DNA of 64,000 nucleotides, taken from positions 4,323,501-4,387,500 of the forward strand of contig NZ_CP051167.1 of NCBI RefSeq assembly GCF_012295525.1, read 5' to 3'. The notes beneath the pieces were generated by a model that saw only the letters and a list, made by a program, of their open reading frames with translations, was not told the DNA's origin and did not search any database. Numbering within the stretch: position 1 is the first letter of the stretch; each line of letters opens with the position of its first letter. Both the position numbers and the translations under genes were made by a program. Of the stretch, positions 7,484 to 47,812 are shown one piece after another. Source of the DNA: Oxynema aestuarii AP17 (lineage in GTDB: Bacteria; Cyanobacteriota; Cyanobacteriia; Cyanobacteriales; Laspinemataceae).

Positions 7484-8850
7484 ACTTAGGCAGAACCCCG
7501 ATCGCCGCGCCGGGTGCGATCGCGTGCCGAGAGCGTGGTACTCCCCTGCTTCCCTAGATGGATCTCACTGAAATTCGCTGCAATGCACCCGGCTTATGAG
7601 TTTTTTTGGTACTTTTCCTCACTTTTCGGAGATCGATGCATCTCATTTCGATCGATGGGGCGGGCGATCGCGGGTCCGTTTGAAGGGAGTTTTATATAGA
7701 TTGAAGCACTCTTGAGGAGAGTAAAAAATTCACGGAATCATCGTTTTCAGTATTCTTGGCGAGTCGGTTTGTGCGTTGGCAATGGGGGGTATGGAGAAAC
7801 ACGGAGCGCCACCTCCGCAATAACCGAGGGGCGATCGAGTCTCTCGAAAATCCCTTACTGAGATCCGCGTTCGTCACGTCGCCGCTTCTAAGTGAGTGGC
7901 GATCGCCCGTGTCGATTTGATTTAAACAAGCTGACTTAAGTCACACATGGCTCCGATCGAAAGCAAAAACTGACCCGCACGGAGCCGATCTTCAATGTCT
8001 TAGAAAATGGTAAGGTCGGTTTCGACGGACACCTCAGCAGGGGAAGAATAAGGAGCTTCTAGGGATAAACAAATCCCGTTTGACGGCGATGAGTTCCTTG
8101 GAATAGGGTAGGAAGTTATCGCATTAGAGAGGCGATCGCCAAACAGCGATCCCTAGGTATTGTCTGTCCTGGAGATCGAAAAAGCAACTCGATGTTTACC
8201 CGGCTCGAAAGCGCGGGATTGAGGGGAGCGAGCCATCGTTAGGAACAGTTGTATCCAGGGTTGTAGAAGGGACTCGAAGCGCGAGACAGCAAGGGGAAGA
8301 GGGCGATCGTGCGATCGCGAACCCCCGAAAGCATCGCGCTCAAGAAAGGAGAACTTTTGACAACGAGACGAACTATCGAAAAGGTAAGCCCTTGTCAATT
8401 TGTTGCCAAGAAGAGTTAGAATATTTAGTCTACTGAGTGCAATCAGATCGCGCGACGGGAATTGAAGCCGACGAGGACGAAGGGTGCGATGTTTGCGAAG
8501 CGATTCGTCAATATATTCAAAATCAAAAAGCAAAATCAAAAAGCTCTCGCTCTTTTGAAGTCCTTGGAGCGTTCCCCAGGTTGCCGATTGTCACTTGCAC
8601 CTCGATCGGAAGTCACGGTAGTGGCTTCTCTCTCAGATGATTAGAAATTCGCTGCTTTTGGGAGATGGCGAGAGCAATGAGTGAAAAATTGGTTTGCGCC
8701 ATCAAAGTATCTTCGGCACGAGAGAAGCGATGATTTTCTCTTTCGATCTCCTCTAGCCTATAATGGCGAAATCATCTACTTGTCTGAGATGATAGGAAAG
8801 CGCAAGTGACTCTATAGGTGTAAAGTTTTGTGGCAGGGAAATCTCACCCG
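7484..8850. other. Long intergenic stretch, no convincing gene
   Basis: About 1.4 kb between the methyl-accepting gene and the STAND protein. Open frames here are short, overlap on both strands and have no family features or good ribosome-binding sites. HIP1 sites are frequent. A TATAAT at 8759-8764 lacks a good -35 element. I see no RNA gene I can name. Confidence 0.55.
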
Positions 8851-10765: not shown

Positions 10766-12502
10766 GTGTCGATCGCCACGCCAACCCCCACCAAAGTGAG
10801 TTACTGCATTAATCCTCACTGTTCCCACCGGGAAAATCCTGATGGCGCAACTCACTGTCAGAGTTGTGGGACGAGCTTGCTCGTTGACGATCGCTATCAA
10901 ATACTGCGCCCCTTGCGTCCCCCCAATCCCGCCGCCATGACCGACGTATACGAAGTCAAAGATTGGGGAACGAATCAACTCAATTGGGGCGAAATCAAAG
11001 TTTTAAAAATCTTCAAATTCACCCACAATCCCAAATTAGTGCGCCTGTTTCGACGAGAAGCACGGGTTTTGATGTGGCTGAGACATCCCGGCATTCCCAA
11101 AGTCGAACCGGACGGCTATTTCACCGTGACCTTGCCCCGTAACAAAATCGTTCACGGTTTGGTCATGGAAAAAATCGAAGGGGAAAACTTAGAACAATGG
11201 CTGTCCGAGAACGGCGCGATCTCGACAGACCGAGCCCTCGATTGGCTGCAACAGTTAACCGAACTGCTCCACGTCATCCATCAACACAATCTCGGCCATC
11301 GAGACCTCAAACCGTCCAATCTGATTTTGCGTCCCAACGGCGAACTCGCCCTCGTCGACTTTGGTACCGTCGCCGAATTCGGCGCCGACAGCCAAACCCG
11401 GGTGGGAACCAGTGGTTATGCCGCTCCCGAACAACTCGAAGGGAAAGCAACCCGACAGTCGGACTTTTTTGCCCTGGGGCGCACCTTCGTTCACTTACTC
11501 TCGGGCTTGTCGCCGATGGAATTTCCCGAAACGGACAAAGGGGAATTACAGTGGCGCGATCGCGTTGCCGACCTAGAGCGACCGTTAGCCGACGCGATCG
11601 ACGAACTGATGGCGCCCGATTGGAAAGCGCGAGCGCAACATACCAAAATCATTTTGCAGCGTTTGGAGCAGATCCGAGCGCAATTAAAATCGAGCCAGGA
11701 GCGCCCGGGGTCGGGGCGATCGCTCCTCTGGAAAGCGGCCCTACCCTGGGTCGGGATCGCGGGCGTAGTCGGGGTGGGATGGCGAGTGCTCAGCCCGGCA
11801 GTACAACTGTACTGGAATCACGCGATCGCACCGAACATTTCCCAACAGTTCAACGAGCTGACCGTGACCAATTTTCAAGATAAAAACTTTGAAAAAGCCC
11901 TTCTATTCGGCCAACTCGCCTTGAACTTCGATCGCGACAACAGCTATGCGTCTTACAACTTGGCGATGGTCTACGAAGAAAAAGAAGATTACCGACGCGC
12001 CACAGAATATTACGAACGGGCGATCGCCGACGGCGAACCGAGAACCCAATTGCGCGCCACCAATAACTTAGCGCGCTTGCAAATTTGGAGAGCGGGAGAT
12101 ACCCAAGGGGCGATCGCCCGCCTGAGCGACGCCTTAGAACGGGCGCGACATTACGAAAAGATCGACCCGCAAACCCTCTCAGACCTGTACAAAAACCTGG
12201 GATGGGCGTATTTTCAAGAAAACCGCAATCGCGAAGCCGAACGCCAGTTGCGAGAGGCGATCGCCCTCGACGATCGCAATATCGCCGCCTACTGCCTGTT
12301 GGCCCAAACCCTCGAACGAACCCCCGACGACGACCGGGGCGGGAACGCCCCTCCCCCCTTACTGCCCTGGAAACAGTGCGCCCGAGATAGCGATCTCGTT
12401 ATCAATCCCGAAACGCGGGTTTGGCAGATGATGGCTCGCCAGCGCTTGGACGAACCGCACGCCGCCTCGCGATCGCTGCCTACCCCGTCAACTTCCCCGT
12501 GA
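10766..12502 (+). CDS. Zinc-ribbon Ser/Thr kinase with TPR tail
   Basis: A 578-residue eukaryotic-type protein kinase. An N-terminal ribbon (Cys14, Cys19, Cys31, Cys34) precedes DDRYQIL, the usual start of cyanobacterial kinase domains. Lys78 or Lys81 in EIKVLKIF is the likely ATP lysine; the catalytic loop HRDLKPSN (178-185), DFG (198-200) and APEQ (220-223) are intact, so the enzyme should be active. A single transmembrane segment (PWVGIAGVVGVGW, about residue 325) is followed by TPR-like repeats (ASYNLAMVYEEKEDYRRA; NNLARLQIWRAGDTQGAI; LYKNLGWAYFQENRNREAE). The start is a GTG at 10766. Its stop overlaps the start of the HEAT-repeat gene by one base, so translation is coupled. Confidence 0.92.
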   Translation: MSIATPTPTKVSYCINPHCSHRENPDGATHCQSCGTSLLVDDRYQILRPLRPPNPAAMTDVYEVKDWGTNQLNWGEIKVLKIFKFTHNPKLVRLFRREARVLMWLRHPGIPKVEPDGYFTVTLPRNKIVHGLVMEKIEGENLEQWLSENGAISTDRALDWLQQLTELLHVIHQHNLGHRDLKPSNLILRPNGELALVDFGTVAEFGADSQTRVGTSGYAAPEQLEGKATRQSDFFALGRTFVHLLSGLSPMEFPETDKGELQWRDRVADLERPLADAIDELMAPDWKARAQHTKIILQRLEQIRAQLKSSQERPGSGRSLLWKAALPWVGIAGVVGVGWRVLSPAVQLYWNHAIAPNISQQFNELTVTNFQDKNFEKALLFGQLALNFDRDNSYASYNLAMVYEEKEDYRRATEYYERAIADGEPRTQLRATNNLARLQIWRAGDTQGAIARLSDALERARHYEKIDPQTLSDLYKNLGWAYFQENRNREAERQLREAIALDDRNIAAYCLLAQTLERTPDDDRGGNAPPPLLPWKQCARDSDLVINPETRVWQMMARQRLDEPHAASRSLPTPSTSP

Positions 12503-34294: not shown

Positions 34295-35758
34295 TTACAG
34301 ATCGAGATCCCGCAAGAAGTAAAAGCGATCGCCTTGCCAGGTTTCCCCTTTTTTACGCCCTAAATATCCGGTGAGAGGGGAAGACAGTTCGATTAAAATT
34401 TCGTGCAGTTCGTTCAAACTTCCAAGCAATTTAGGCGGGTTTGAGGCATCGTAAGCGCCGTTGAGATATTCGATTCCAACGTCGCGGTTGGCATTTTTTA
34501 CCAATTTAATTAAATGCGATCGCACCTGCAAATCTTGCCAGAGGCGATCGATATAACGATTCACTTTTCCATCGGCTTCTTGTCCGTGGGGTTCTTGTTC
34601 TAAATGAGGTTTGAGGTCGAGTAAATCGATCGCCCCGGGATGGCGGGATTTGAGATCGACTAATCGCTGTAAGGTTTCTGGACGGATGACATTCATTTCA
34701 TTTCCACTCGCCGTTAGTTCCGCATCTTCGGTCAATTCTCCGGCAGCCATAATTATTTTAATACAACGATTGTATTGCCGTTGTAAATGTTTGTAGCCGA
34801 GTTTGACCAGTTGGGCTGGGGTTCCGTCGGGGACTTTTTCACCTTGGGTCGCTTTGCATTCGCCAACGACGGGATAGGGGTTTTCACAATAAAAATCTAA
34901 GCCCCCCGCGCCTCCGGTACTGTCGGGGTGTAAACTGGTTTTCGGATTTGTATTCCGGTTAGAAAAGCCGAGTTTAATTAAACTTTTTCTGACTAATTTT
35001 TCAAAAGTATCGCCATCGCTGGAGTTGCCGACTGTTGCGATCGCCTCGATCCAGTCGCGATCGCGATCGTCTTGGGTTGTTGTTGTCGATTCACCCCAGC
35101 CTAAAAATACTTGTAAATCGAGATCGAAGCCTTGGGCGTTAGCATTTTCCGGCAATATTTCGGCGATCGCGCTTTGTAATAATTCTAATTCGGGATGGTC
35201 GGGAGGTTGTCGTTTTTCGAGTTGTTCCCGACGGCGATAAAAGAGGCGATCGCTCAAGACAGGTTGAGATTCATCGCCGTTAAAATTCTGGGGAATACCG
35301 ATAAATTTACCGGGAACAAGATTAGAGTCTTCTCGCTGACAGACGATCGCTTGTGGTAACTTATAAACGCGAAGACAAGTTAAAAAATAATTATTTTTTC
35401 CCTCAACAATTTCGCCCAATCCTGCACTCGTCCAAATCGTTTGACTCCCTAAAAATTCTAGAAAAGATTCTAGATCTTCCAACCCATTTAAGGATTGACA
35501 AAACTCGCATTTTGCCCATAGTCGAATCCATGCTGTTTCGGGATCTTCTGCGTCCCACTGCGATCGCGCCGTCGGGATAAACCCCGAACGGTAATAGTTT
35601 TCGAGAGGAATTTCTACCGGTAAAGCCTTGAGGGGATAAAGTGCAAAGACTCGATTGGTTTGTAAAAACTGGCGCGATAAAACCGCGATCGCCCGTCCCC
35701 GCATCAGTGCTTCTATTTCCGGCGACGGGACGCATAAAGCGCTAGCAATAAAACTCAT
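34295..35758 (-). CDS. DUF1802-like protein fused to a PD-(D/E)XK nuclease domain
   Basis: About 487 residues from the ATG at 35758. The N-terminal 150 residues (PEIEALMRGRAIAVLSRQFL, RVFALYPLKALPVEIPL, LWAKCEFCQSL, FLTCLRVYKLPQAIV) resemble the cyanobacterial DUF1802 family. A linker leads to a nuclease-like core: FEKLVRKSLIKLGF, then GGLDFYCENPYPVVGECKAT, where Asp288, Glu300 and Lys302 match the D...ExK catalytic pattern, and a final strand CIKIIMAAG. The C-terminal 120 residues are not recognised. It is the third gene of a minus-strand unit after a winged-helix gene and an ATPase gene (72-bp gap). The likely role is DNA cleavage controlled by the ATPase; that is inference. Confidence 0.7.
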   Translation of the reverse strand: MSFIASALCVPSPEIEALMRGRAIAVLSRQFLQTNRVFALYPLKALPVEIPLENYYRSGFIPTARSQWDAEDPETAWIRLWAKCEFCQSLNGLEDLESFLEFLGSQTIWTSAGLGEIVEGKNNYFLTCLRVYKLPQAIVCQREDSNLVPGKFIGIPQNFNGDESQPVLSDRLFYRRREQLEKRQPPDHPELELLQSAIAEILPENANAQGFDLDLQVFLGWGESTTTTQDDRDRDWIEAIATVGNSSDGDTFEKLVRKSLIKLGFSNRNTNPKTSLHPDSTGGAGGLDFYCENPYPVVGECKATQGEKVPDGTPAQLVKLGYKHLQRQYNRCIKIIMAAGELTEDAELTASGNEMNVIRPETLQRLVDLKSRHPGAIDLLDLKPHLEQEPHGQEADGKVNRYIDRLWQDLQVRSHLIKLVKNANRDVGIEYLNGAYDASNPPKLLGSLNELHEILIELSSPLTGYLGRKKGETWQGDRFYFLRDLDL

Positions 35759-35830
35759 TATTTTTATTTTTAACAATCAAAAACCATGTTAAAAAACTCC
35801 CATTTTACAAGAATTTAGACCGGAGTTTTT

Positions 35831-37630
35831 TTAATTGTCTTCTTCGACATCATCGGGGATTTGTCCGGAGGGGTCGCTTAAAATTTCGAGAATCAAAGGA
35901 TTAGTTTCAACGAATTTAGTTTCGGCGATATAATCGAATATTTGAGTATCGCTTAATCCATAATCCTCGCGACCGTCGTACACTTCGGCGATCGCGACTA
36001 AGGGTTTAATTTCTTCAAACTTTAATGTCACCCATTCGCCGCCTTGTTCTTGCAATAAGCGGTTTAAATATTCTCTTGCTCTTCGCGCATTAGGACTGAC
36101 TTCTTTCGAGCGAACTAAACAGCCTCGGGTCAGATCGTATTTTTGATAATTTCCTAAATGAGATAATCCGGCGGTGACGGTCGTTCCGCCAGAAGCTTGC
36201 AGAACGGCAATGCCAATTTTGACCATTTGACCGTTTTCTTCCCCGACGATTTTAAAATCGACATATTTATTCGGAGGGTTAACTTTTTCGATCTCTTTGA
36301 TGGTGACATTTTCCAAGTAAAATCCCACCAATCTCTCGAAACAAAATCGCAGTGATTTGGCGATTTTTGCTTCGTTATCTAGCAAGGAATCGGCTTCTAC
36401 TTGTTCGATTTCGTTATTGAGTGCCGATTCAACGGGATTTTGTTGAGGTTCTCGATCTTGCGATCCGGAATCGGCATTCGGTAAACTCCAGTTATCGCGA
36501 CACCATTTTAAAATATTTCTGGCGATCGCCTTCTGTTTGCCGAGTTCTATCAGCCGATCGCGATCGAACGGATAGACCGGATGGGGTGGCGTTAAATTCT
36601 TTTGTTGGTAGAATTCTGATAAATAAGTGCCGATTAAATTAAAAGCACTATCACCATCTAAAACGTCGAGATCGATTTTGCGTTCGGCAATTCGATCTTC
36701 AATGGCTTTAGGATTTGTCATCGCTTTGAGTTGGGTTATCCAAATCTCGGGATAGACGGCAGTAATCAGTACCCCTTTTTTAAGTTTGTCATATAAGTCC
36801 ATACAGAAATCAGCAACCACTTGCAATCGGGTATAACCCGCATCATTGACTTCTTGTGAATCGAAGCGATCGAAACAAATGACGAGGGGATTGTAGTAAC
36901 TGACTAAATCAAGAATTTGACAACTCATCTCGAAGATTTCATTTTCCCGTTGTTCTTCACTGGGATTGGCTAACTGCATTTGCTCGGCTCGATTTTGTGC
37001 CAAACTTCTGCCGGAGAGCCAGTTGATCGCATAATGTTTATTCTTCGATAGAGTCCAGAGAATCGCTTTAACTAAATCGGGGTTCTCGATATCCGGATGT
37101 AGATCTAAAATACAGTCGGTTAAAGCCTCAATATATGCTGCTGGATTTTCTAAACTTTGCACCTTTTCAACAATTTCTTCGGGCCGATCTTGCTCGGCTT
37201 CAGCATGGTTCACTAAATTAGCGGCTAATTCCTGCCACTGCATCACATTTTTACTGCCCGTTTTTTTGAGGCTGGTTGCGAGGGTTTTGAGGAATTCTAG
37301 GGAAATTTGGTTGAGGTTGGCGTATTGGTCCATGTAAATAAACCAAGCTCCCCCATTGGCTTGCAGGCGATGGCGGATGCGACTGATGAGGTGAGTTTTT
37401 CCGCCTCCGGGGTCGGCGAGAAGGGTAATTCCCATGACTTGACGCGAACCCGATCGCACATTTTCGATCGCCTCAAAGACGGCATCGGAAGCATGAGCGT
37501 TAATCGAGGGAACGTCGGGAAATCCGGTTCCCCAGACTTCTTGTTGTCGGACAGTCAATTCGCGACGGAAGGGATTGTGCGTTTGAATAACTTCGTGAAT
37601 TTGTTCGAGGGGGGAGTGGTCTGGACTCAT
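35831..37630 (-). CDS. AAA/STAND-like ATPase, accessory locus copy 1
   Basis: A 599-residue P-loop ATPase. Walker A is ADPGGGKTHL (residues 72-81) and Walker B LVICFDRFD (249-257); the region between includes KNVMQWQELA and PDLVKAILWTL. A sensor/lid region follows (VLITAVYPEIWITQLKAM; FNLIGTYLSEFY; RNILKWCRDNWSLP), giving an ORC/Cdc6 or STAND flavour. The C-terminal 200 residues contain a beta-rich domain (VKIGIAVLQASGGTTV; QKYDLTRGCLVRSKEV) that resembles a degenerate restriction-endonuclease fold, and an acidic tail. It lies 60 bp after the winged-helix gene and 72 bp before the nuclease gene. A diverged paralogue is at 40274-42202. No named system was recognised. Confidence 0.75.
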   Translation of the reverse strand: MSPDHSPLEQIHEVIQTHNPFRRELTVRQQEVWGTGFPDVPSINAHASDAVFEAIENVRSGSRQVMGITLLADPGGGKTHLISRIRHRLQANGGAWFIYMDQYANLNQISLEFLKTLATSLKKTGSKNVMQWQELAANLVNHAEAEQDRPEEIVEKVQSLENPAAYIEALTDCILDLHPDIENPDLVKAILWTLSKNKHYAINWLSGRSLAQNRAEQMQLANPSEEQRENEIFEMSCQILDLVSYYNPLVICFDRFDSQEVNDAGYTRLQVVADFCMDLYDKLKKGVLITAVYPEIWITQLKAMTNPKAIEDRIAERKIDLDVLDGDSAFNLIGTYLSEFYQQKNLTPPHPVYPFDRDRLIELGKQKAIARNILKWCRDNWSLPNADSGSQDREPQQNPVESALNNEIEQVEADSLLDNEAKIAKSLRFCFERLVGFYLENVTIKEIEKVNPPNKYVDFKIVGEENGQMVKIGIAVLQASGGTTVTAGLSHLGNYQKYDLTRGCLVRSKEVSPNARRAREYLNRLLQEQGGEWVTLKFEEIKPLVAIAEVYDGREDYGLSDTQIFDYIAETKFVETNPLILEILSDPSGQIPDDVEEDN

Positions 37631-37690
37631 AATCTAGTGGTGAGGAGGAGAATTCAACAATTCGGGAAAAAAGCGAGTGGAAATCGGGAT

Positions 37691-38401
37691 TTAAGCGTTA
37701 ATGCGTTTGATATAACAACGCAAACCGCTCAGTTCGGTGGTAATCGAGTCTTCAATTTTGCTCGGGTCGTTATCCGGTAGGCTGCTCCCTTGCAAGCGGA
37801 TTTTGTCGTTGGTTTGCATTTCCAACAGCCACTGGTTGAACTCGGACCGAGAGATGCGATCGCCGATTTCGCGACGAAGCCGATAAATCGGAACCAGGCG
37901 ATCGAAATTGTAATCCCGGTTGAGTTGCTCGTAGAGATCGAGGGTGACCCGCTCGAAATCGGCGTAAGAAGATATCCCGGCGCCGGGTACATGACCGTCT
38001 CCGTCGCCGAGAACATCCGGCGCCACCCCTGCCGATCGTGCGGCGCCGGGGTACCTTTGGCGAAGCCAATCGAGTAAAGCGTTGCCGAGTTTGCTGCTCA
38101 CTTGCTGTGCGTCGAACTCGAATTCGGGGTCTCTCAACCCGGCGTCGAGGGCGTCAAAACCGACGGGTTCGAGTAACGTCACCTTGTTTTTGGCAATGGC
38201 GATCGCCCCTTGCGCAATTAATTCTTCGAGAATGGGCGAGTAATCTTTAGCGCGCTCGTTGGTGCGGACGATCCTGTTGTTTAATTGGCCTTTTTTGACC
38301 GATTCTCGGTGAGCTTTCATATCCCAGAGGGTCAGCAAGACGCGAACTTTAGCCTGTTGAGGGGTTCCTCTCAGTCCTTTTTGAGTTTTGCTGGCAGCCA
38401 T
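37691..38401 (-). CDS. Two-domain winged-helix protein
   Basis: A 236-residue protein from the ATG at 38401, preceded on the minus strand by AAGGGGT. The N-terminal half (AKVRVLLTLWDMKAHRESVK, then YSPILEELIAQGAIAIAKNK) and the C-terminal half (LVPIYRLRREIGDRISRSEF, NQWLLEMQTNDKIRL, ITTELSGLRCYIKRI) both look like winged helices. They are joined by a Gly/Pro/Ala/Asp-rich linker (RYPGAARSAGVAPDVLGDGD). The linker DNA carries two partial copies of the GGCGCCGGGGTA motif also found in the direct repeats upstream. It is the first gene of the three-gene unit, and probably binds DNA as a regulator or as the recognition subunit of the system. Confidence 0.7.
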   Translation of the reverse strand: MAASKTQKGLRGTPQQAKVRVLLTLWDMKAHRESVKKGQLNNRIVRTNERAKDYSPILEELIAQGAIAIAKNKVTLLEPVGFDALDAGLRDPEFEFDAQQVSSKLGNALLDWLRQRYPGAARSAGVAPDVLGDGDGHVPGAGISSYADFERVTLDLYEQLNRDYNFDRLVPIYRLRREIGDRISRSEFNQWLLEMQTNDKIRLQGSSLPDNDPSKIEDSITTELSGLRCYIKRINA

Positions 38402-38438
38402 TTTACTTATACCCCTTAGTTGAAGCATTACTGTTTAT

Positions 38439-38496: not shown

Positions 38497-38590
38497 AGTT
38501 CGGAGGGCGCCGGGGTATTTAGTTCGGGGGGCGCCGGGGTATTTAGTTGGGGGCGCCGGGGTATTTAGTTCGGGGGGCGCCGGGGTATTT
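38497..38590. repeat. Four direct 24-bp repeats upstream of the unit
   Basis: Four head-to-tail units, AGTTCGGGGGGCGCC followed by GGGGTATTT, at 38497-38520, 38521-38544, 38545-38566 (22 bp, one short G run) and 38567-38590. They end about 30 bp upstream of the predicted -35. The regular 24-bp spacing and internal palindrome GGCGCC suggest a protein-binding array; a simple replication-slippage repeat is the alternative. Confidence 0.85.
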
Positions 38591-39403
38591 AGGCGAGAAC
38601 TACCGCATTTTCAAAGCAAAAATGGGGGTTTTGCTTCTCCGTAGCAGAAACGTGCGCTCGCCAACGTTTTTGTTATGTTTGTAATATACATTTGATTCAC
38701 AGTGCGTAGGAACTGATAAAAGATACAAAATTTCCGTTGGCGGTCAATGCTGAATTGAAAATGATGGATTCCAGAGTTAAAATAGCCACGATCGCGCGTT
38801 AAAATGAATGGAAAGGCGATTGCGGCGGTTCCTACGGTCGAAATAGCTGGAAATCTCTATATTTTTGTATTTTTGGCTATTTTCCACGCCAAACAGGCGA
38901 TCGCGCCGACGGCGATCGTCGCTCGGTCTTAAAAGTTGGTGAAATTTACAAAATCTGGCTCAAAAGACAGCCTCGATCCTCCCCGGATATCTTTTGAGGA
39001 TTGCCAATCTATGACTTCAAACTTGCGAAAATCCCCGGTTTTAGCGATATCTGGGTCGAGCATTGAGTGAAAGAGCGCGGATCTCTACAATAACTCCCGC
39101 ACTCAGCTCGGCCCTCAAGTGTTCTTGTGCTTCTTCCTGTGAGTTCTGGCTCTTTGACAAAGGGTTTTGGCGATCGCCTCCGAAGGTTCTGTTAGATCGT
39201 GGTCTGCGATTAGTGAGTCTAACGGACCGTCGCACCGACGAAGGCTTTGTCTAAGTCAAACTCGATTCCAGTTTCGATCGCGTCCCAACTTATTGGAGGG
39301 AAAATTTTCAAAAATTTTTGGAGAATTTTTCAACTCAATAAGTATTGATACTGGTCGAGTCCATTGACAAGTTAAATGAGCATTTTTACTGACTCACTTC
39401 GAC
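38591..39403. other. Intergenic stretch within the accessory locus
   Basis: About 810 bp with mixed composition and no convincing gene; short open frames lack ribosome sites. An AT-rich zone with TTTTT/AAAAA runs lies near 39300-39330. Confidence 0.5.
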
Positions 39404-40273: not shown

Positions 40274-42202
40274 TTACGGCGAGTCATTACTCTCGTCAAT
40301 TTTGAGTAAATTGCGATCGTTTCCGGTGGGATTCGATCGCCTATCGGGAGGGAAATAAGGACGATCGCCGTCCCCCTCCACCGCCTGGGGTAAAGGAGCG
40401 ATCGCCGTAGAGAGGATGGCTGAGATCGTAGGATTTTCCGCGAGGAACTGGTGCTGTCGGACAAACTCGACAATCTCGCGATCGCCCAATTGCCATTGCT
40501 GGCGCTCTCGATGGAGCCACCAAAGGGCCAATAAGGGGGTGAGGGCGTCTCGATCTAAAGGAATATAGCTACAGCGATCGCCCCGGATAAAGCGCGCCAA
40601 CCCTTGACGACACTGCCAGTGAGCGGGAATTTGCGGAGCCAGCAGACAGGCGCCGTCGAGACCGAGGCGATCGCGATCGAGCAGGCGAGCGAAGGTCGCC
40701 CGCAATTCGGACGCATTCAAGCGAGGGACGATCGCCAGACCGATCGCGTGAGATCCGGCATCGGTGCGGACGATCGCCCGTAAGGGAACGTAACGGCGAT
40801 CGTGCAGATCCCTCGCCTCCATCGATTCCACCGCTTCTAAGGTGACTCCGGCGATCGACCGATCTAAAAGCATCTGTAAAGCCAATTGCAGCGCCGCGAC
40901 GAGCGATCGGCGATCGGCGTGCAGTTGGCGTTCCTCCACGGTCTGCTTGGCGCGATCCAAGGCAATTTGCACCGCTTCCCACGGGTCTACCTCCACCGGG
41001 CGAAAATTTTCCGCGCACCATTCCAACAACTCGCGGACGTTGAGTTCCTCGCGCGCCAAGGCATCGAGTTGGTCGCTATCGAAGGGATAGAGCGATCGCG
41101 GCGGGATTAAATGACAGCGATCGTAAAATTGCTGCAAGAATAACCCCACCAGTTCGCGCATTCCCCGAACATCGATCGCCTGCAAACGAATCGGAGCGAC
41201 AGATTTCGACAGATAGGCGACAATTCCCGACGGGAGGGACTGAATTTTTTCATACCAGGTCTGCGGCGTGGCGGCGATCGCCAAAACCACGCCATAGTTG
41301 AGACGGGCGATCGGCAACGTTTCCCAAATCCGCTTGACCAAACTCGCCACGACCCGTTCCCGCTTCAATCCCGTATCGCTATTTTCCGGCGAGTCGAGTT
41401 GGTCGAAGGCGATAACGACCGGGTAGAACTGAGTGGCGAGACTGAAAATTTCCAGAACAATTTCCCACCCTTGGGCGTCGCGGTAATCGCGGCTGCGGTT
41501 GGGTAATCCCAGTTCCTCCGCCTTCGCCGACGCCAACACTTGGCCCGCCAACCACTTGATTGCATAGGGAGCTTGGGCGTGACACAAAGTCCACAACAGT
41601 GCACGCACCAGATCCGGATCGCCGAGAGTCGGTCGAATTTTGAAAAAAGCCTCGCTGAGTTGGGCGATCCAGGTTTGATTTTTGGAGAGGGTTTGACGGT
41701 TGAGCTTGTTGACCAGAGAGTCCACCGAAAAGCGATCGCGCTCCGGATAAATGGATTGAAAGGCTTCGAGGGCGATCGCCGTCGCCAAATCCTGCCACTG
41801 CATGAAGTTGGCAGAACCCGGATGGCGGAAGCTATCGACTACGGTTTGTAAAAACTGGTAGCGAATGAGATTGACATCGCTAAATTGACCCGCATTGACG
41901 TAAACGAGCAACCCGCGACGGTCGCGTTGAAGTTGTTGGCGGACGCAGGCGATCGCGTGGGTTTTCCCCGTTCCTGTCTCGCCGAGGATCGCCAACGAAG
42001 ATAGAGGCTCGATCCGCTTGCGCGCGCGTTCCACCGCATCGAGAACGGCGGCGATCGCCTCCGGGTTCAACCCTTCTAAATTCGGCGGCGTCGCCCACCA
42101 AATTTCCCGTTCCGTGACCCGGGTCGCGCGCTCGAACGGATTGGCGGCGGCGATCGCGGCATTGAGATGGACAATCGCAGAACTGACCGAAGTACAAGAC
42201 AT
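40274..42202 (-). CDS. AAA/STAND-like ATPase, accessory locus copy 2
   Basis: About 642 residues from the ATG at 42202. It is a clear, diverged homologue of the ATPase at 35831-37630. Shared landmarks are NPF near residue 21, Walker A ILGETGTGKTH (72-82), the FMQWQDLATAI block, DPDLVRALLWTL, YAIKWLAGQVLA, and Walker B PVVIAFDQLD (261-270). The C-terminal half again has a beta-rich region (SHAIGLAIVPRLNASELRAT) and a Pro/Asp-rich tail. Its codons are more GC- and HIP1-rich than copy 1, suggesting different ages in this genome. No nuclease or winged-helix partner lies next to it, so it may share those of copy 1. Confidence 0.72.
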   Translation of the reverse strand: MSCTSVSSAIVHLNAAIAAANPFERATRVTEREIWWATPPNLEGLNPEAIAAVLDAVERARKRIEPLSSLAILGETGTGKTHAIACVRQQLQRDRRGLLVYVNAGQFSDVNLIRYQFLQTVVDSFRHPGSANFMQWQDLATAIALEAFQSIYPERDRFSVDSLVNKLNRQTLSKNQTWIAQLSEAFFKIRPTLGDPDLVRALLWTLCHAQAPYAIKWLAGQVLASAKAEELGLPNRSRDYRDAQGWEIVLEIFSLATQFYPVVIAFDQLDSPENSDTGLKRERVVASLVKRIWETLPIARLNYGVVLAIAATPQTWYEKIQSLPSGIVAYLSKSVAPIRLQAIDVRGMRELVGLFLQQFYDRCHLIPPRSLYPFDSDQLDALAREELNVRELLEWCAENFRPVEVDPWEAVQIALDRAKQTVEERQLHADRRSLVAALQLALQMLLDRSIAGVTLEAVESMEARDLHDRRYVPLRAIVRTDAGSHAIGLAIVPRLNASELRATFARLLDRDRLGLDGACLLAPQIPAHWQCRQGLARFIRGDRCSYIPLDRDALTPLLALWWLHRERQQWQLGDREIVEFVRQHQFLAENPTISAILSTAIAPLPQAVEGDGDRPYFPPDRRSNPTGNDRNLLKIDESNDSP

Positions 42203-42647
42203 GGGAGGGAAAGGCTTATCCTTACATAAAATCGCGAGAAAACAACTCAGGACAGCCGATCTAGACGTTCTCAGGGTTTGAGGGGGAGTGACGTTGGGTC
42301 TCGCCATACGAGACGAGTTTTCCGATCGCAAAGCAAGAGGTAACTAGTTCTCTTTATTTAGTGTGCCTCGAAATTCGCCGCGATCGAAGGGATTGGGAAT
42401 ATTTGATTTGAGATTTTAGGTTTTAGATTTTAGATGGAGGGACTCGGGACGCTTGAAAACTCCCGGTCAGTCGTCCCTTGTCAATGGCTGTCGGGCAAGA
42501 TGCCCGTTCTACCAGACTCAGCGAGTGGTGACTTCGTCAATTTCCCTATCTTGCCCACCTTTAATGAAAATATGCCACCGTGCTACCCTGTGAAGAATCG
42601 TTCAACTGCTGGTCAACTCCTGTCCGACGTTCCGTTGTTAAGTTCGC
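42203..42647. other. Intergenic region between ATPase copy 2 and smc
   Basis: About 445 bp between divergent genes. It contains an AGATTTTAG-rich tract (about 42411-42433), the complement of the repeats upstream of narM, and the palindrome at 42492. No gene seen. Confidence 0.5.
42492..42506. repeat. Dispersed palindrome, copy 4
   Basis: CGGGCA-AGA-TGCCCG, a shorter copy of the family seen at 5245, 26240 and 30544. Confidence 0.75.
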
Positions 42648-46546: not shown

Positions 46547-47812
46547 ATGCTGACCATGAACTACACTTACCGAATCTATCCAAATGTCGTACAGCAGACT
46601 GAACTGCTGTCGTGGCTTGAGACGTGCAGAGGCGTATATAACTACGCTTTGCGCGAACTCAAGGATTGGATTGCTTCGCGTAAGTGTTCGGTAGACCGAT
46701 GCTCGCTGGAAAAGGAATACATCATTCCCGCCGATGAGCCATTTCCGTCCTACCACCGTCAGCAGAACAACCTGCCCAAAGCGAAGAAGCAATTCCCGCA
46801 CTTGGGTAAGGTGCATTCTCAGGTGTTGCAGAACACAATTCGTAGACTGCACGATACCTGGGAAGCCTTTAAGAAACGGGGACATGGATTCCCGCGTTTC
46901 AAAAAGTTCGGTCAATTCAAATCCTTTCTATTTCCCCAATTCAAGCACAATCCCATCAATGGCTTCACAATCAAGTTGCCAAAGTTAGGGGAAATACCCA
47001 TGAACCTGCATCGTCCCATCCCTGACGGGTTCAAGGTAAAACAGGTAAGGGTACTGTCCAGGGTACGGGGTACACAATGGTATGTTGTCGTCACGATTGA
47101 ATCGGATATATCGGTTCCCGATGTCCCGGTTCACGGTCGGGCGATCGGGATTGATCTGGGATTGCAGCGATTCTTGACCGCTTCCGATGGCTCTTTCCAA
47201 GAGCGACCCAAGTTTTTCAAGTCGATGCAACGCAAGCTGAAATTGCTGCAACGCAGAGCGGCACGAAAACAGAAGGGTTCTCAAAACTGGGAGAAGGCGC
47301 AAATCGAAGTGGCTAGAATGCACCATCGCATTGCCAATCGTCGTAAAGATTTCCATCTGAAAACGGCTCATCAGCTTTGCGATCGGGCGCAAACTATCTT
47401 TGCAGAAGATCTCAACGTCACGGGGTTGACGAGAGGAATGCTGCGAAAAGATTGTGTAGATGCCGCCTTCGGACAATTTCTGTCTCTGACAGAATGGGTG
47501 TGCTGGAAACGGGGAGTGTACTTTGCCAAAGTCAATCCCAACGGCACCAGTCAAACCTGTCCATCCTGCCTTGCTACGGTGAGCAAGGGGTTGGAAGTCA
47601 GAGAGCATCATTGTCCTGAGTGTGGGTATCGGACTCATCGCGACCATGCCGCCGCAGAGATGGTTTTGGATCGTGGACTAGAGAATGTAGTAGCCCAGGG
47701 ACTCTGGGGAACGGAAACAGCCTGTCAAGTCGGTCTGTCGGGGGTCTATGACCTAGATAAGTGGCGTGGGGCAGGAATACCCAATCGTGAGGCTGGGAAG
47801 CCCGCGCTGTAA
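46547..47812 (+). CDS. tnpB: TnpB, RNA-guided nuclease of an IS200/IS605 element
   Basis: A 421-residue TnpB. The N-terminal wedge/REC-like part begins YTYRIYPNVVQQTELLSWLE. The RuvC-like site is intact: Asp203 in AIGIDLGLQ, Glu287 in FAEDLNV, Asp366 in HRDHAAAEMV. A zinc finger lies between the last two (CPSC 338-341, CPEC 356-359). The protein is therefore probably active as an omega-RNA-guided DNA nuclease that promotes element retention. The ATG at 46547 is used; an internal Met4 is possible. Its 3' end overlaps the element's right end, where the guide RNA is expected. Confidence 0.95.
   Translation: MLTMNYTYRIYPNVVQQTELLSWLETCRGVYNYALRELKDWIASRKCSVDRCSLEKEYIIPADEPFPSYHRQQNNLPKAKKQFPHLGKVHSQVLQNTIRRLHDTWEAFKKRGHGFPRFKKFGQFKSFLFPQFKHNPINGFTIKLPKLGEIPMNLHRPIPDGFKVKQVRVLSRVRGTQWYVVVTIESDISVPDVPVHGRAIGIDLGLQRFLTASDGSFQERPKFFKSMQRKLKLLQRRAARKQKGSQNWEKAQIEVARMHHRIANRRKDFHLKTAHQLCDRAQTIFAEDLNVTGLTRGMLRKDCVDAAFGQFLSLTEWVCWKRGVYFAKVNPNGTSQTCPSCLATVSKGLEVREHHCPECGYRTHRDHAAAEMVLDRGLENVVAQGLWGTETACQVGLSGVYDLDKWRGAGIPNREAGKPAL

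What the first reader, a model, noticed from the sequence alone, without database searches (positions are those of the whole stretch)
34295..38401. Candidate undescribed system: winged helix, ATPase, DUF1802-nuclease
Three consecutive minus-strand genes with 60- and 72-bp gaps encode a two-domain winged-helix protein, an AAA/STAND-like ATPase with clear Walker motifs, and a DUF1802-like protein with a D...ExK nuclease core. Sequence recognition, a molecular switch and a nuclease in one unit is the logic of many prokaryotic defence or plasmid-control systems. I do not recognise it as a named one. The functional reading is inference.
Basis: partly seen in the sequence, partly recalled or inferred. 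Interest (0 to 1): 0.8.

Follow-up and report, generated by a model that had tools for sequence, protein, structure and literature searches.

The report
Three-gene cyanobacterial defence operon, swappable nuclease
Three neighbouring genes in a filamentous cyanobacterium most likely form a DNA-cutting immune complex against invading DNA, and in related genomes the cutting part has been exchanged repeatedly between two versions while the rest of the complex changes independently of it.

Summary
Three co-directed genes (window 34295-38401, minus strand) encode a winged-helix-type protein (P3), an ORC/Cdc6-like AAA+ ATPase (P2) and a DUF1802 protein with a PD-(D/E)XK nuclease (P1). They are a real unit: 56 of 61 fetched loci carry all three in this order. 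In 386 cyanobacterial genomes, 54 of 55 with the long P1 also have P2, and those 54 all have P3. The system is not wholly undescribed: one clause of PMC10853773 names operons of an Orc/Cdc6 ATPase, an ASCH-REase fusion and a wHTH protein, which fits.

I found no description of its evolution in my searches. The nuclease core (P1 residues ~233-419, a FokI/BspD6I-like domain) exists in two types that are shuffled almost at random against the rest of the operon. One pair is 87-100% identical in P2/P1 DNA outside a ~560-bp nuclease segment at 48-67%. The unit sits in fixed chromosomal slots. There it can be cleanly absent, reduced to its two ends, or replaced between those ends by a BnzB-like gene pair. 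I read it as an anti-invader restriction complex; the function is inferred and no activity was tested.

The parts
37691..38401 (-). P3, winged-helix-type protein (236 aa from ATG 38401; ORF opens at 38428). N half approx 38024-38371, C half approx 37694-37981
   Evidence: mainly the C half matches the wHTH partner of cousin ATPases by hhalign, prob 96.6; N and C halves evolve apart
35831..37630 (-). P2, ORC/Cdc6-like AAA+ ATPase, 599 aa; AAA+ approx residues 40-318; C-terminal a/b domain (approx 400-560) with the strand/helix order of an REase-like fold
34295..35758 (-). P1, DUF1802-nuclease (487 aa from ATG 35758; residue numbers in this report count from the TTG at 35776, six codons earlier)
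35222..35740 (-). DUF1802 domain of P1 (residues 13-185), ASCH/PUA-like by predicted fold
   Evidence: PF08819 E 5e-21; VIA CXorf40A Z 9.8, ZmASCH 7.6, TRIP4 ASCH 6.9; no sequence-profile support for ASCH
34547..35059 (-). Exchangeable PD-(D/E)XK nuclease cassette of P1 (residues 240-410, type I here; DNA-level break points in one pair of relatives map to residues 233 and 419); catalytic E259, D294, E306, K308
34298..34534 (-). C-terminal tip of P1 (residues 415-493), not tied to the nuclease type; parts of it kept as a scar in two decayed loci

Best explanation
An anti-invader DNA restriction complex. P2, an ORC/Cdc6-like AAA+ ATPase, assembles on DNA together with P3, whose C-terminal domain docks on P2 and whose N-terminal winged helix contacts DNA (inferred). 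P1 docks on P2/P3 through its DUF1802 (ASCH/PUA-like) domain, which may also inspect DNA bases (inferred). ATP-driven recognition of foreign DNA licenses the FokI-like PD-(D/E)XK domain to cut it (inferred; the fold is predicted, the catalytic residues are shown). The operon lives in fixed chromosomal slots. Recombination swaps the nuclease core between two types and can replace everything between P3's N-terminus and P1's C-terminus, also with other defence cargo (pattern shown; mechanism and selective cause inferred: escape from phage inhibitors).
For: Unit: 56 of 61 loci full trio, all 56 on one strand, median gaps 46 and 5.5 bp; long P1 in 55, P2 in 56, both in 54 of 386 genomes, and P3 in all 54. 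Active sites kept. Folds: P1 N.BspD6I Z 13.7, FokI 11.7; DUF1802 part CXorf40A 9.8, ZmASCH 7.6; P2 ORC Z 13.6, TnsC 13.4, RdrA (RADAR) 12.0, BrxC 11.3. Cousin ATPase and wHTH proteins (hhalign 99.8 and 96.6) sit, in L113 and L114, with an exonuclease/PD-(D/E)XK/FtsK gene, a class that PMC10853773 assigns to anti-invader systems. Slot behaviour: clean empty sites in G066 and G298; BnzB-like gene pair between P3 and P1 scars in G245; scars of both ends in G284; a NACHT protein in the slot's neighbourhood in G101, though not in the exact spot. Nuclease exchange.
Against: No phage or cutting assay exists. P1-P3 match no PADLOC family and no NCBIfam family near its cut-off. Foldseek gave no match at E <= 0.001 for either model; the fold calls rest on VIA re-alignment of Foldseek's own candidates, several of the ASCH rows lie under Z 8, and the P1 model is weak (pLDDT 65.5, with the stretch around D294 largely below 50). 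In many genomes the operon sits among housekeeping genes, not in a recognised defence island. No match was found for P1 in viral contigs, phage or plasmid records or for P2 in plasmids (P2 and P3 were not searched in phages), so mobility between distant hosts is not shown.
Confidence: 0.7

Rival explanations
1. A modification-dependent (type IV) restriction system in the narrow sense: DUF1802 reads a modified base, as EVE/ASCH/SRA domains do in McrB-, VcaM4I- or MspJI-type enzymes, and licenses the fused nuclease.
For: ASCH/PUA-like fold of the DUF1802 part, with a weak VIA match to VcaM4I (Z 5.2) and of the nuclease to MspJI (6.3) and AspBHI (6.1); passages of PMC7641849 tie ASCH/EVE domains to modified bases in restriction systems; PMC10853773 calls ASCH a modified-DNA-binding domain. 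No gene neighbours the trio at all of its sites, which leaves no obvious cognate methylase, but neighbours were not scanned for methylases.
Against: The DUF1802 part co-evolves with P2 and P3C (r 0.75-0.79), which looks more like a docking domain than a fast-changing reader; no profile-level similarity to ASCH; a short stand-alone DUF1802 protein is present in many of these genomes, whose role is unknown.
Confidence: 0.35
2. A host DNA-metabolism complex (replication, segregation, repair or competence filter) that happens to contain an ORC-like ATPase and a nuclease.
For: ORC/Cdc6 likeness; chromosomal location between mutM/mdh and pgi in many genomes; no match in plasmid (P1, P2) or phage (P1) records.
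Against: Patchy within a genus (present in G002, G207; absent from the site in G066, G298); interior replaced by a BnzB-like pair in G245; exchange of the nuclease core.
Confidence: 0.15
3. The mosaic is ordinary homologous recombination at a diverse locus; the nuclease types are neutral variants and the exchange says nothing about conflict.
For: P2, P3 and P1 ends also recombine; P1C is nearly as loose as the nuclease (P2-P1C r 0.21, P3C-P1C 0.18); P3N is mosaic too; all loci come from one phylum.
Against: Housekeeping neighbours stay coherent (pgi-mutM r 0.91) and chassis parts stay coherent with each other (P2-P3C 0.85), while the nuclease core falls to r 0.13-0.22 with every other part and alone shows two deep, sharply bounded types.
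Confidence: 0.25

Closest known systems
Orc/Cdc6 + (ASCH-REase) + DndG-like triple-wHTH operons (PMC10853773, section 22)
   Same: Same three kinds of component as one clause of that section lists; ATPase kin to those of its HerA/FtsK class
   Different: DUF1802 is not found in that paper's text by the library search; 'cyanobacteri', 'swap', Nostoc and Anabaena do not occur in its main text. Whether its supplement lists these very proteins could not be checked (no supplement look-ups allowed)
HerA/FtsK anti-invader capture systems
   Same: Homologous ORC-like ATPase and wHTH protein
   Different: No FtsK/HerA gene in the trio; effector is a DUF1802-FokI-like nuclease
FokI / R.BspD6I type IIS endonucleases
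   Same: Predicted nuclease fold, model residues 228-410 = P1 residues 234-416
   Different: An ASCH-like domain and a separate AAA+ ATPase in place of a fused sequence-specific DNA-binding part (that FokI has one is stated in PMC10853773 section 19)
BREX (BrxC), RADAR (RdrA), Tn7 (TnsC)
   Same: AAA+ fold of P2
   Different: P1 and P3 are not their partner proteins by PADLOC (empty) or Pfam; the neighbours of the 61 loci were not scanned for those partners

Membership tests
Orc/Cdc6 + ASCH-REase + wHTH operon class of PMC10853773 | ORC/Cdc6-type AAA+ ATPase with intact Walker motifs | tested here: met
   (ORC Z 13.6, rmsd 2.9, 155 aligned; TnsC 13.4 is tied)
Orc/Cdc6 + ASCH-REase + wHTH operon class of PMC10853773 | inactive REase-like domain between AAA+ and C-terminal wHTH (stated there for the HerA/FtsK-linked ATPases) | tested here: inconclusive
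   Residues 400-580 confident (block pLDDT 79-94) with helix-3 strands-helix-strand-helix-strand order; Foldseek PaqCI prob 0.98 but E 0.03 and aligned range not shown; VIA barely tested this part
Orc/Cdc6 + ASCH-REase + wHTH operon class of PMC10853773 | REase fused to an ASCH domain | tested here: inconclusive
   Fold supports ASCH-like (CXorf40A Z 9.8, ZmASCH 7.6; that CXorf40A is an ASCH protein is recalled); profile comparison with cyanobacterial ASCH proteins gave none (prob 0.3, shallow alignments)
Orc/Cdc6 + ASCH-REase + wHTH operon class of PMC10853773 | DndG-like triple wHTH partner | tested here: inconclusive
PD-(D/E)XK nuclease superfamily | D...ExK catalytic core in the right fold | tested here: met
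   D294/E306/K308 each in 58 of 59; N.BspD6I/FokI fold Z 13.7/11.7, though the model is weak around D294; Mrr_cat listed for 41 of 59 at E <= 1
DUF1802 (PF08819) | score over Pfam's cut-off | tested here: met
   75.7 bits against 25; all 59 P1 rows match at E <= 1, best E 6e-38
HerA/FtsK capture system | HerA/FtsK translocase in the operon | tested here: not met
   No FtsK/HerA family for P1, P2 or P3 nor in ten neighbouring window proteins scanned; the trio's neighbours differ from site to site
McrBC type IV restriction | GTP-specific McrB AAA+ motif and McrC | not tested
   No McrB/McrC family was shown in the Pfam scans (lists capped at 25 families for the last two), but no dedicated test was made

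The most novel reading that the evidence does not exclude
The operon is a replaceable-cartridge defence locus. Its two outer ends (P3 N-terminus, P1 C-terminus) serve as recombination arms. Between them whole defence cargos are exchanged, and inside the cargo the catalytic nuclease core is itself a cassette that alternates between two FokI-like types on a chassis of its own history. It would be an immune system that diversifies its blade rather than its target reader.
Probability: 0.42. Interest if true: 0.8.

Novelty: new variant of a known kind. Interest (0 to 1): 0.6.

Why it matters
In restriction systems diversity is usually sought in the target-recognition part (general knowledge). Here the catalytic core is what is exchanged, with sharp boundaries that coincide with the predicted domain. 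If confirmed, this makes a question testable: do phages inhibit nucleases specifically enough to select for swapping them? It also gives DUF1802 a likely fold and context, and marks a slot in filamentous cyanobacteria from which further systems (such as the BnzB-like pair) can be read.

Tried and rejected
SMC link: the window's paralogous ATPase P0004 (40274-42331) lies beside smc, which suggested a segregation role. tblastn of the window's SMC against nine loci (eight with P0004-like ATPases, and L049) found none, so it was dropped. P0004 as a fourth subunit: P0004-like genes stand without P1 or P3 in L077, L081-L083 and L138-L141. L049 has a second ATPase gene next to its trio, but that one is closer to P2 than to P0004.

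NACHT in the trio's slot: on checking again, the slot of G101 (between c16 and the retropepsin-like gene) is empty and the NACHT gene lies two genes away, between mdh and c24; I dropped it as a replacement. G127's two FAD oxidases between pgi and mdh are likewise not counted as a replacement, because its P3 remnant lies elsewhere.

Upstream repeats as a conserved operator: of 57 loci tested, only the window has the 24-bp array (38497-38592); nine others have different arrays.

DUF1802 = ASCH by sequence: not supported. Phage or plasmid carriage: nothing found. Solved relatives by sequence: none convincing. Regions with no VIA match (P1 beyond ~420, P2 400-599) were not predicted alone, so nothing is claimed from absence. 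Literature on effector exchange: searches (3 listed; 12 of 305 listed) gave nothing on this operon by their listings.

Limits of the counts: the 61 loci were chosen by P2 hits; P2-like places in G155, G233 and G298, and the weak one in G133, were not fetched for that set. Only searches are independent counts. Nuclease types were assigned by a motif inside the cassette, so the first windows are partly circular; the difference extends about 150 residues further, and the tree of residues 238-360 separates the types with one change. Dropped rows: the second P1 copy of L005 (type analysis), the split P2 frames of L069, L080, L090, L091 (A2), and the extra ATPase of L049 (correlations and trees). 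Minus-strand rows of A1-A3 lack their first codon through my coordinate choice. Trees were 'quick' LG+G4 trees.
Full report
WHAT IS THERE. Three minus-strand genes at 34295-38401 are confirmed. The window is part of a 6.36-Mb single-contig genome, G000:C1:4323501-4387500; named relatives are cyanobacteria. P3 (236 aa) has weak winged-helix matches only. P2 (599 aa) is a P-loop ATPase (AAA_16 listed for 59 of 60 rows at E <= 1). P1 (487-493 aa) is DUF1802 (E 5e-21) followed by a Mrr-like nuclease. PADLOC found nothing, and NCBIfam nothing near its cut-offs.

IT IS ONE UNIT. I fetched 61 loci around P2 relatives: six from genome contigs and 55 by place; a few P2-like places were left out (G155, G233, G298, G133). 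56 of the 61 carry P3-P2-P1 in this order on one strand, with median gaps of 46 bp (-4 to 128) and 5.5 bp (-95 to 320). The five others: in L001 P2 is interrupted and P3 lies with the first part of P2 on another contig (L134); L077, L081, L082 and L083 hold solitary P0004-like ATPases. Because the loci were chosen by P2, I counted P1 and P3 independently in the same 386 genomes. DUF1802 proteins with a frame over 400 aa are in 55 and P2 at E <= 1e-26 in 56; 54 have both (Fisher p 2e-62). G153 has P1 but no P2; its P1 and P3 lie at contig edges. G066 and G298 have P2 only; in G066 it is P0004-like, in G298 I infer the same from a near-identical score. By my reading, P3 at E <= 1e-60 is in 56 genomes: all 54, plus G153 and G129. 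G133, below these cut-offs, has a divergent P2-P3 pair at a contig edge. The weak P2 matches (20-27% identity, frames ~640-740 aa in most) are a cousin family, not the trio. In the window's own family, of 14 genomes seen the trio is in G000, in G390 and G392 and, interrupted, in G386; the other ten show nothing beyond P0004-like or cousin matches, of which I looked at the loci of G388 and G396 and at one cousin locus of G229.

FOLDS. P1 model: mean pLDDT 65.5, eight sequences; model numbers are six lower than P1 numbers. Foldseek had no hit at E <= 0.001. VIA re-alignment gave N.BspD6I Z 13.7 (172 residues, 3.0 A), FokI 11.7 and HindIII 9.4 for model residues ~228-410 (P1 234-416); and CXorf40A 9.8 (147 residues, 3.8 A), TTHA0113 8.0, ZmASCH 7.6, TRIP4 ASCH 6.9 for the DUF1802 part. 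So DUF1802 is ASCH/PUA-like by fold, with the caution that rows under Z 8 may show only a common arrangement; sequence profiles did not show it. The stretch around D294 is among the least confident of the model. P2 model: pLDDT 77.0; Foldseek again no hit at E <= 0.001; VIA: ORC Z 13.6, TnsC 13.4, RdrA 12.0, BrxC 11.3 over residues ~40-318. The confident C-terminal domain (about 400-560) has the strand/helix order of an REase-like fold; I take it as a probable inactive REase, not as shown. Catalytic residues of P1 are each kept in 58 of 59 rows; the single exception is a duplicate in L005 that sits beside an intact copy and has A, E, K and Q at the four places.

THE NUCLEASE CORE IS A CASSETTE. 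P1 nuclease cores fall into two types (26 and 32 of 58 loci). In 40-residue windows, within-type minus between-type identity is 0.13-0.23 from residue 221 to 421 (0 of 200 label shuffles reach it), 0.04 at 401-441 (also 0 of 200), and at most 0.02 elsewhere; two windows in DUF1802 (121-181) are small but reached by only 4 and 1 of 200. Mapping the type on trees needs 15 changes on the P2 tree (54 rows; shuffled mean 18.0; 110 of 1000 shuffles as low), 19 on P3 (57 rows; 18.8; 624), 18 on P1's N-part (58 rows; 19.3; 327) and 1 on the nuclease tree (58 rows; 19.3; 0). Pairwise-identity correlations: P2-P3C 0.85, P2-P1N 0.75, P3C-P1N 0.79, but P2-nuclease 0.13, P3C-nuclease 0.13, P1N-nuclease 0.21 and P3N-nuclease 0.22; these are small but not zero (3, 4, 0 and 0 of 2000 permutations reach them). 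As a control, the housekeeping neighbours pgi and mutM correlate at 0.91 (13 loci), and the nuclease with them at 0.12 (19) and 0.04 (17). The clearest pair, L003/L047, is 87-100% identical per 100 columns through P2 and the first part of P1, 48-67% over ~560 bp (L003 10458-11014), then 98% and 90% to the end of P1; the break points map to P1 residues 233 and 419, which fits the FokI-like domain at 234-416. Protein identity is 0.95 for P1N, P1C and P2, and 0.48 for the nuclease. The rest is not a rigid block: P1C correlates with P2 at only 0.21, and P3's N half with P2 at 0.33. P3N follows the housekeeping neighbours (mutM 0.81, pgi 0.58) better than P2 does (0.38, 0.28); P3C (0.63, 0.53) and P1N (0.67, 0.56) lie between (17 and 19 loci).

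FIXED SLOTS, WITH LOSS AND REPLACEMENT. In 14 of 56 trios both flanks are the mutM/psaE/mdh side and the pgi/livM side, in 13 one flank, in 29 neither; the 14 hold seven of each nuclease type. One of the 14, L088, has a P2 only 28% identical to the window's, so divergent trios share the slot. In another genus the trio of G002 and G207 is absent from the site in G066 and G298: homology of G066 to G002 stops at L046 7573 and resumes at 12094, about 4.5 kb, with 31 bp in its place (22 bp in G298). I fetched the pgi region of nine genomes without a complete trio. G024 shows pgi and mdh close together without the trio. In G101 the spot between c16 and the retropepsin-like gene is empty, and a 1060-aa NACHT protein lies between mdh and c24. 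G127 has two FAD oxidases between pgi and mdh. In G334 the region is rearranged. In the other five (G191, G385, G174, G245, G153) mdh is not in the stretch. In G284 (L143) P3 residues 6-96 and P1 residues 426-486 remain (numbers of the query proteins), with a stop in P3. In G245 (L144) P3 1-93 and P1 430-461 flank a gene matching PADLOC BnzB (E 1e-61) and a second gene with a weak PADLOC match (PDC-M09A), with the same neighbours (c5, retropepsin-like, c16, c21, c3) as intact trios of its genus. In G127 (L145) a P3 remnant stands beside such a pair and c5/retropepsin pieces; no P1 remnant was found there. That BnzB belongs to the Bunzi defence system is recalled; one search gave listings only. 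In G129 an intact P3 stands before a PLD-SNF2 helicase protein.

HOW IT PROBABLY WORKS. Shown: unit, conserved active sites, co-evolving P3C-P2-P1N, exchangeable core, slot behaviour; folds are predicted. Inferred: P3C-P2-P1N form the complex; P2 loads on DNA; recognition (P3N, perhaps DUF1802) licenses the nuclease; the target is foreign DNA; selection by phage counter-measures drives the exchange.

WHAT IS KNOWN. 'DUF1802' occurs in one paper of the library, a forest-soil network study by its listing. PMC10853773 (sections 19 and 22 read whole; [quoted passage not shown] My cousin loci match its HerA/FtsK class: ATPases beside a wHTH-type protein in L112-L114 and, in L113 and L114, an exonuclease/PD-(D/E)XK/FtsK protein. 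PMC12839542 (passages and section 36), PMC7641849 (passages) and PMC7159879 (passages) give context. My searches of the library (the lists of 93 and 121 were capped) showed no account of nuclease exchange in this operon; supplements could not be read. I therefore call it a new variant of a known, so far (to my knowledge) only predicted, kind.

Noticed in passing
window 40274-42331 (-): P0004, a paralogous ATPase (28% identical to P2) with intact-looking Walker motifs, 1.9 kb upstream; relatives stand without P1 and P3 in several genomes.
   Followed up: partly
window 38497-38592 and 38042-38053: A 24-bp x 4 tandem array just upstream of P3; its core TACCCCGGCGCC occurs 8 times in the genome, 5 of them here, one inside the P3 gene between its two halves. 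No other locus tested has this array.
   Followed up: partly
L001 near 7984-8010; L134 end: In the Oscillatoria SIO1A7 assembly P2 is interrupted just after the P-loop; the two broken ends share a 12-bp direct repeat and inverted ends matching at 15 of 16 bases, as an inserted element would leave.
   Followed up: partly
L112 3136-8475 (own genome), L113, L114: Cousin module: ~680-715-aa ORC-like ATPases (two or three per locus in L112 and L113) with a wHTH-type protein and, in L113 and L114, a DEDD-exonuclease/PD-(D/E)XK/FtsK protein.
   Followed up: partly
L142 7657-11876: Intact P3 followed by a 1097-aa PLD-SNF2 helicase instead of P2 and P1.
   Followed up: no
L144 4630-6957; L145 4425-6544: BnzB-like gene and a second gene lodged beside a P3 remnant (between P3 and P1 remnants in L144).
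   Followed up: partly
L100 10163-13345: NACHT protein (PF05729 E 1e-13) with an FGE-sulfatase-like part between mdh and c24, two genes from the empty trio slot.
   Followed up: no
L005 11434-12876: Second, tandem P1 copy with all four catalytic positions changed while the first copy is intact.
   Followed up: no
L069, L080, L090, L091: P2 is split into two frames in these four loci; decay or sequencing error not told apart.
   Followed up: no
L002 1362-2345, L003 5705-6685, L047 6250-7224: An extra ~326-aa gene upstream of the trio with a P3-like stretch (35% identity; N-terminal part in L047).
   Followed up: no
L066 11989-12665 and relatives: A small gene pair (120 aa, retropepsin-like by my own reading, and 105 aa), in some genomes tandemly repeated, borders the slot.
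   Followed up: no
window 46547-47812 (+): OrfB_IS605/TnpB-like transposase with a Cas12f1-like TNB domain beside smc.
   Followed up: no
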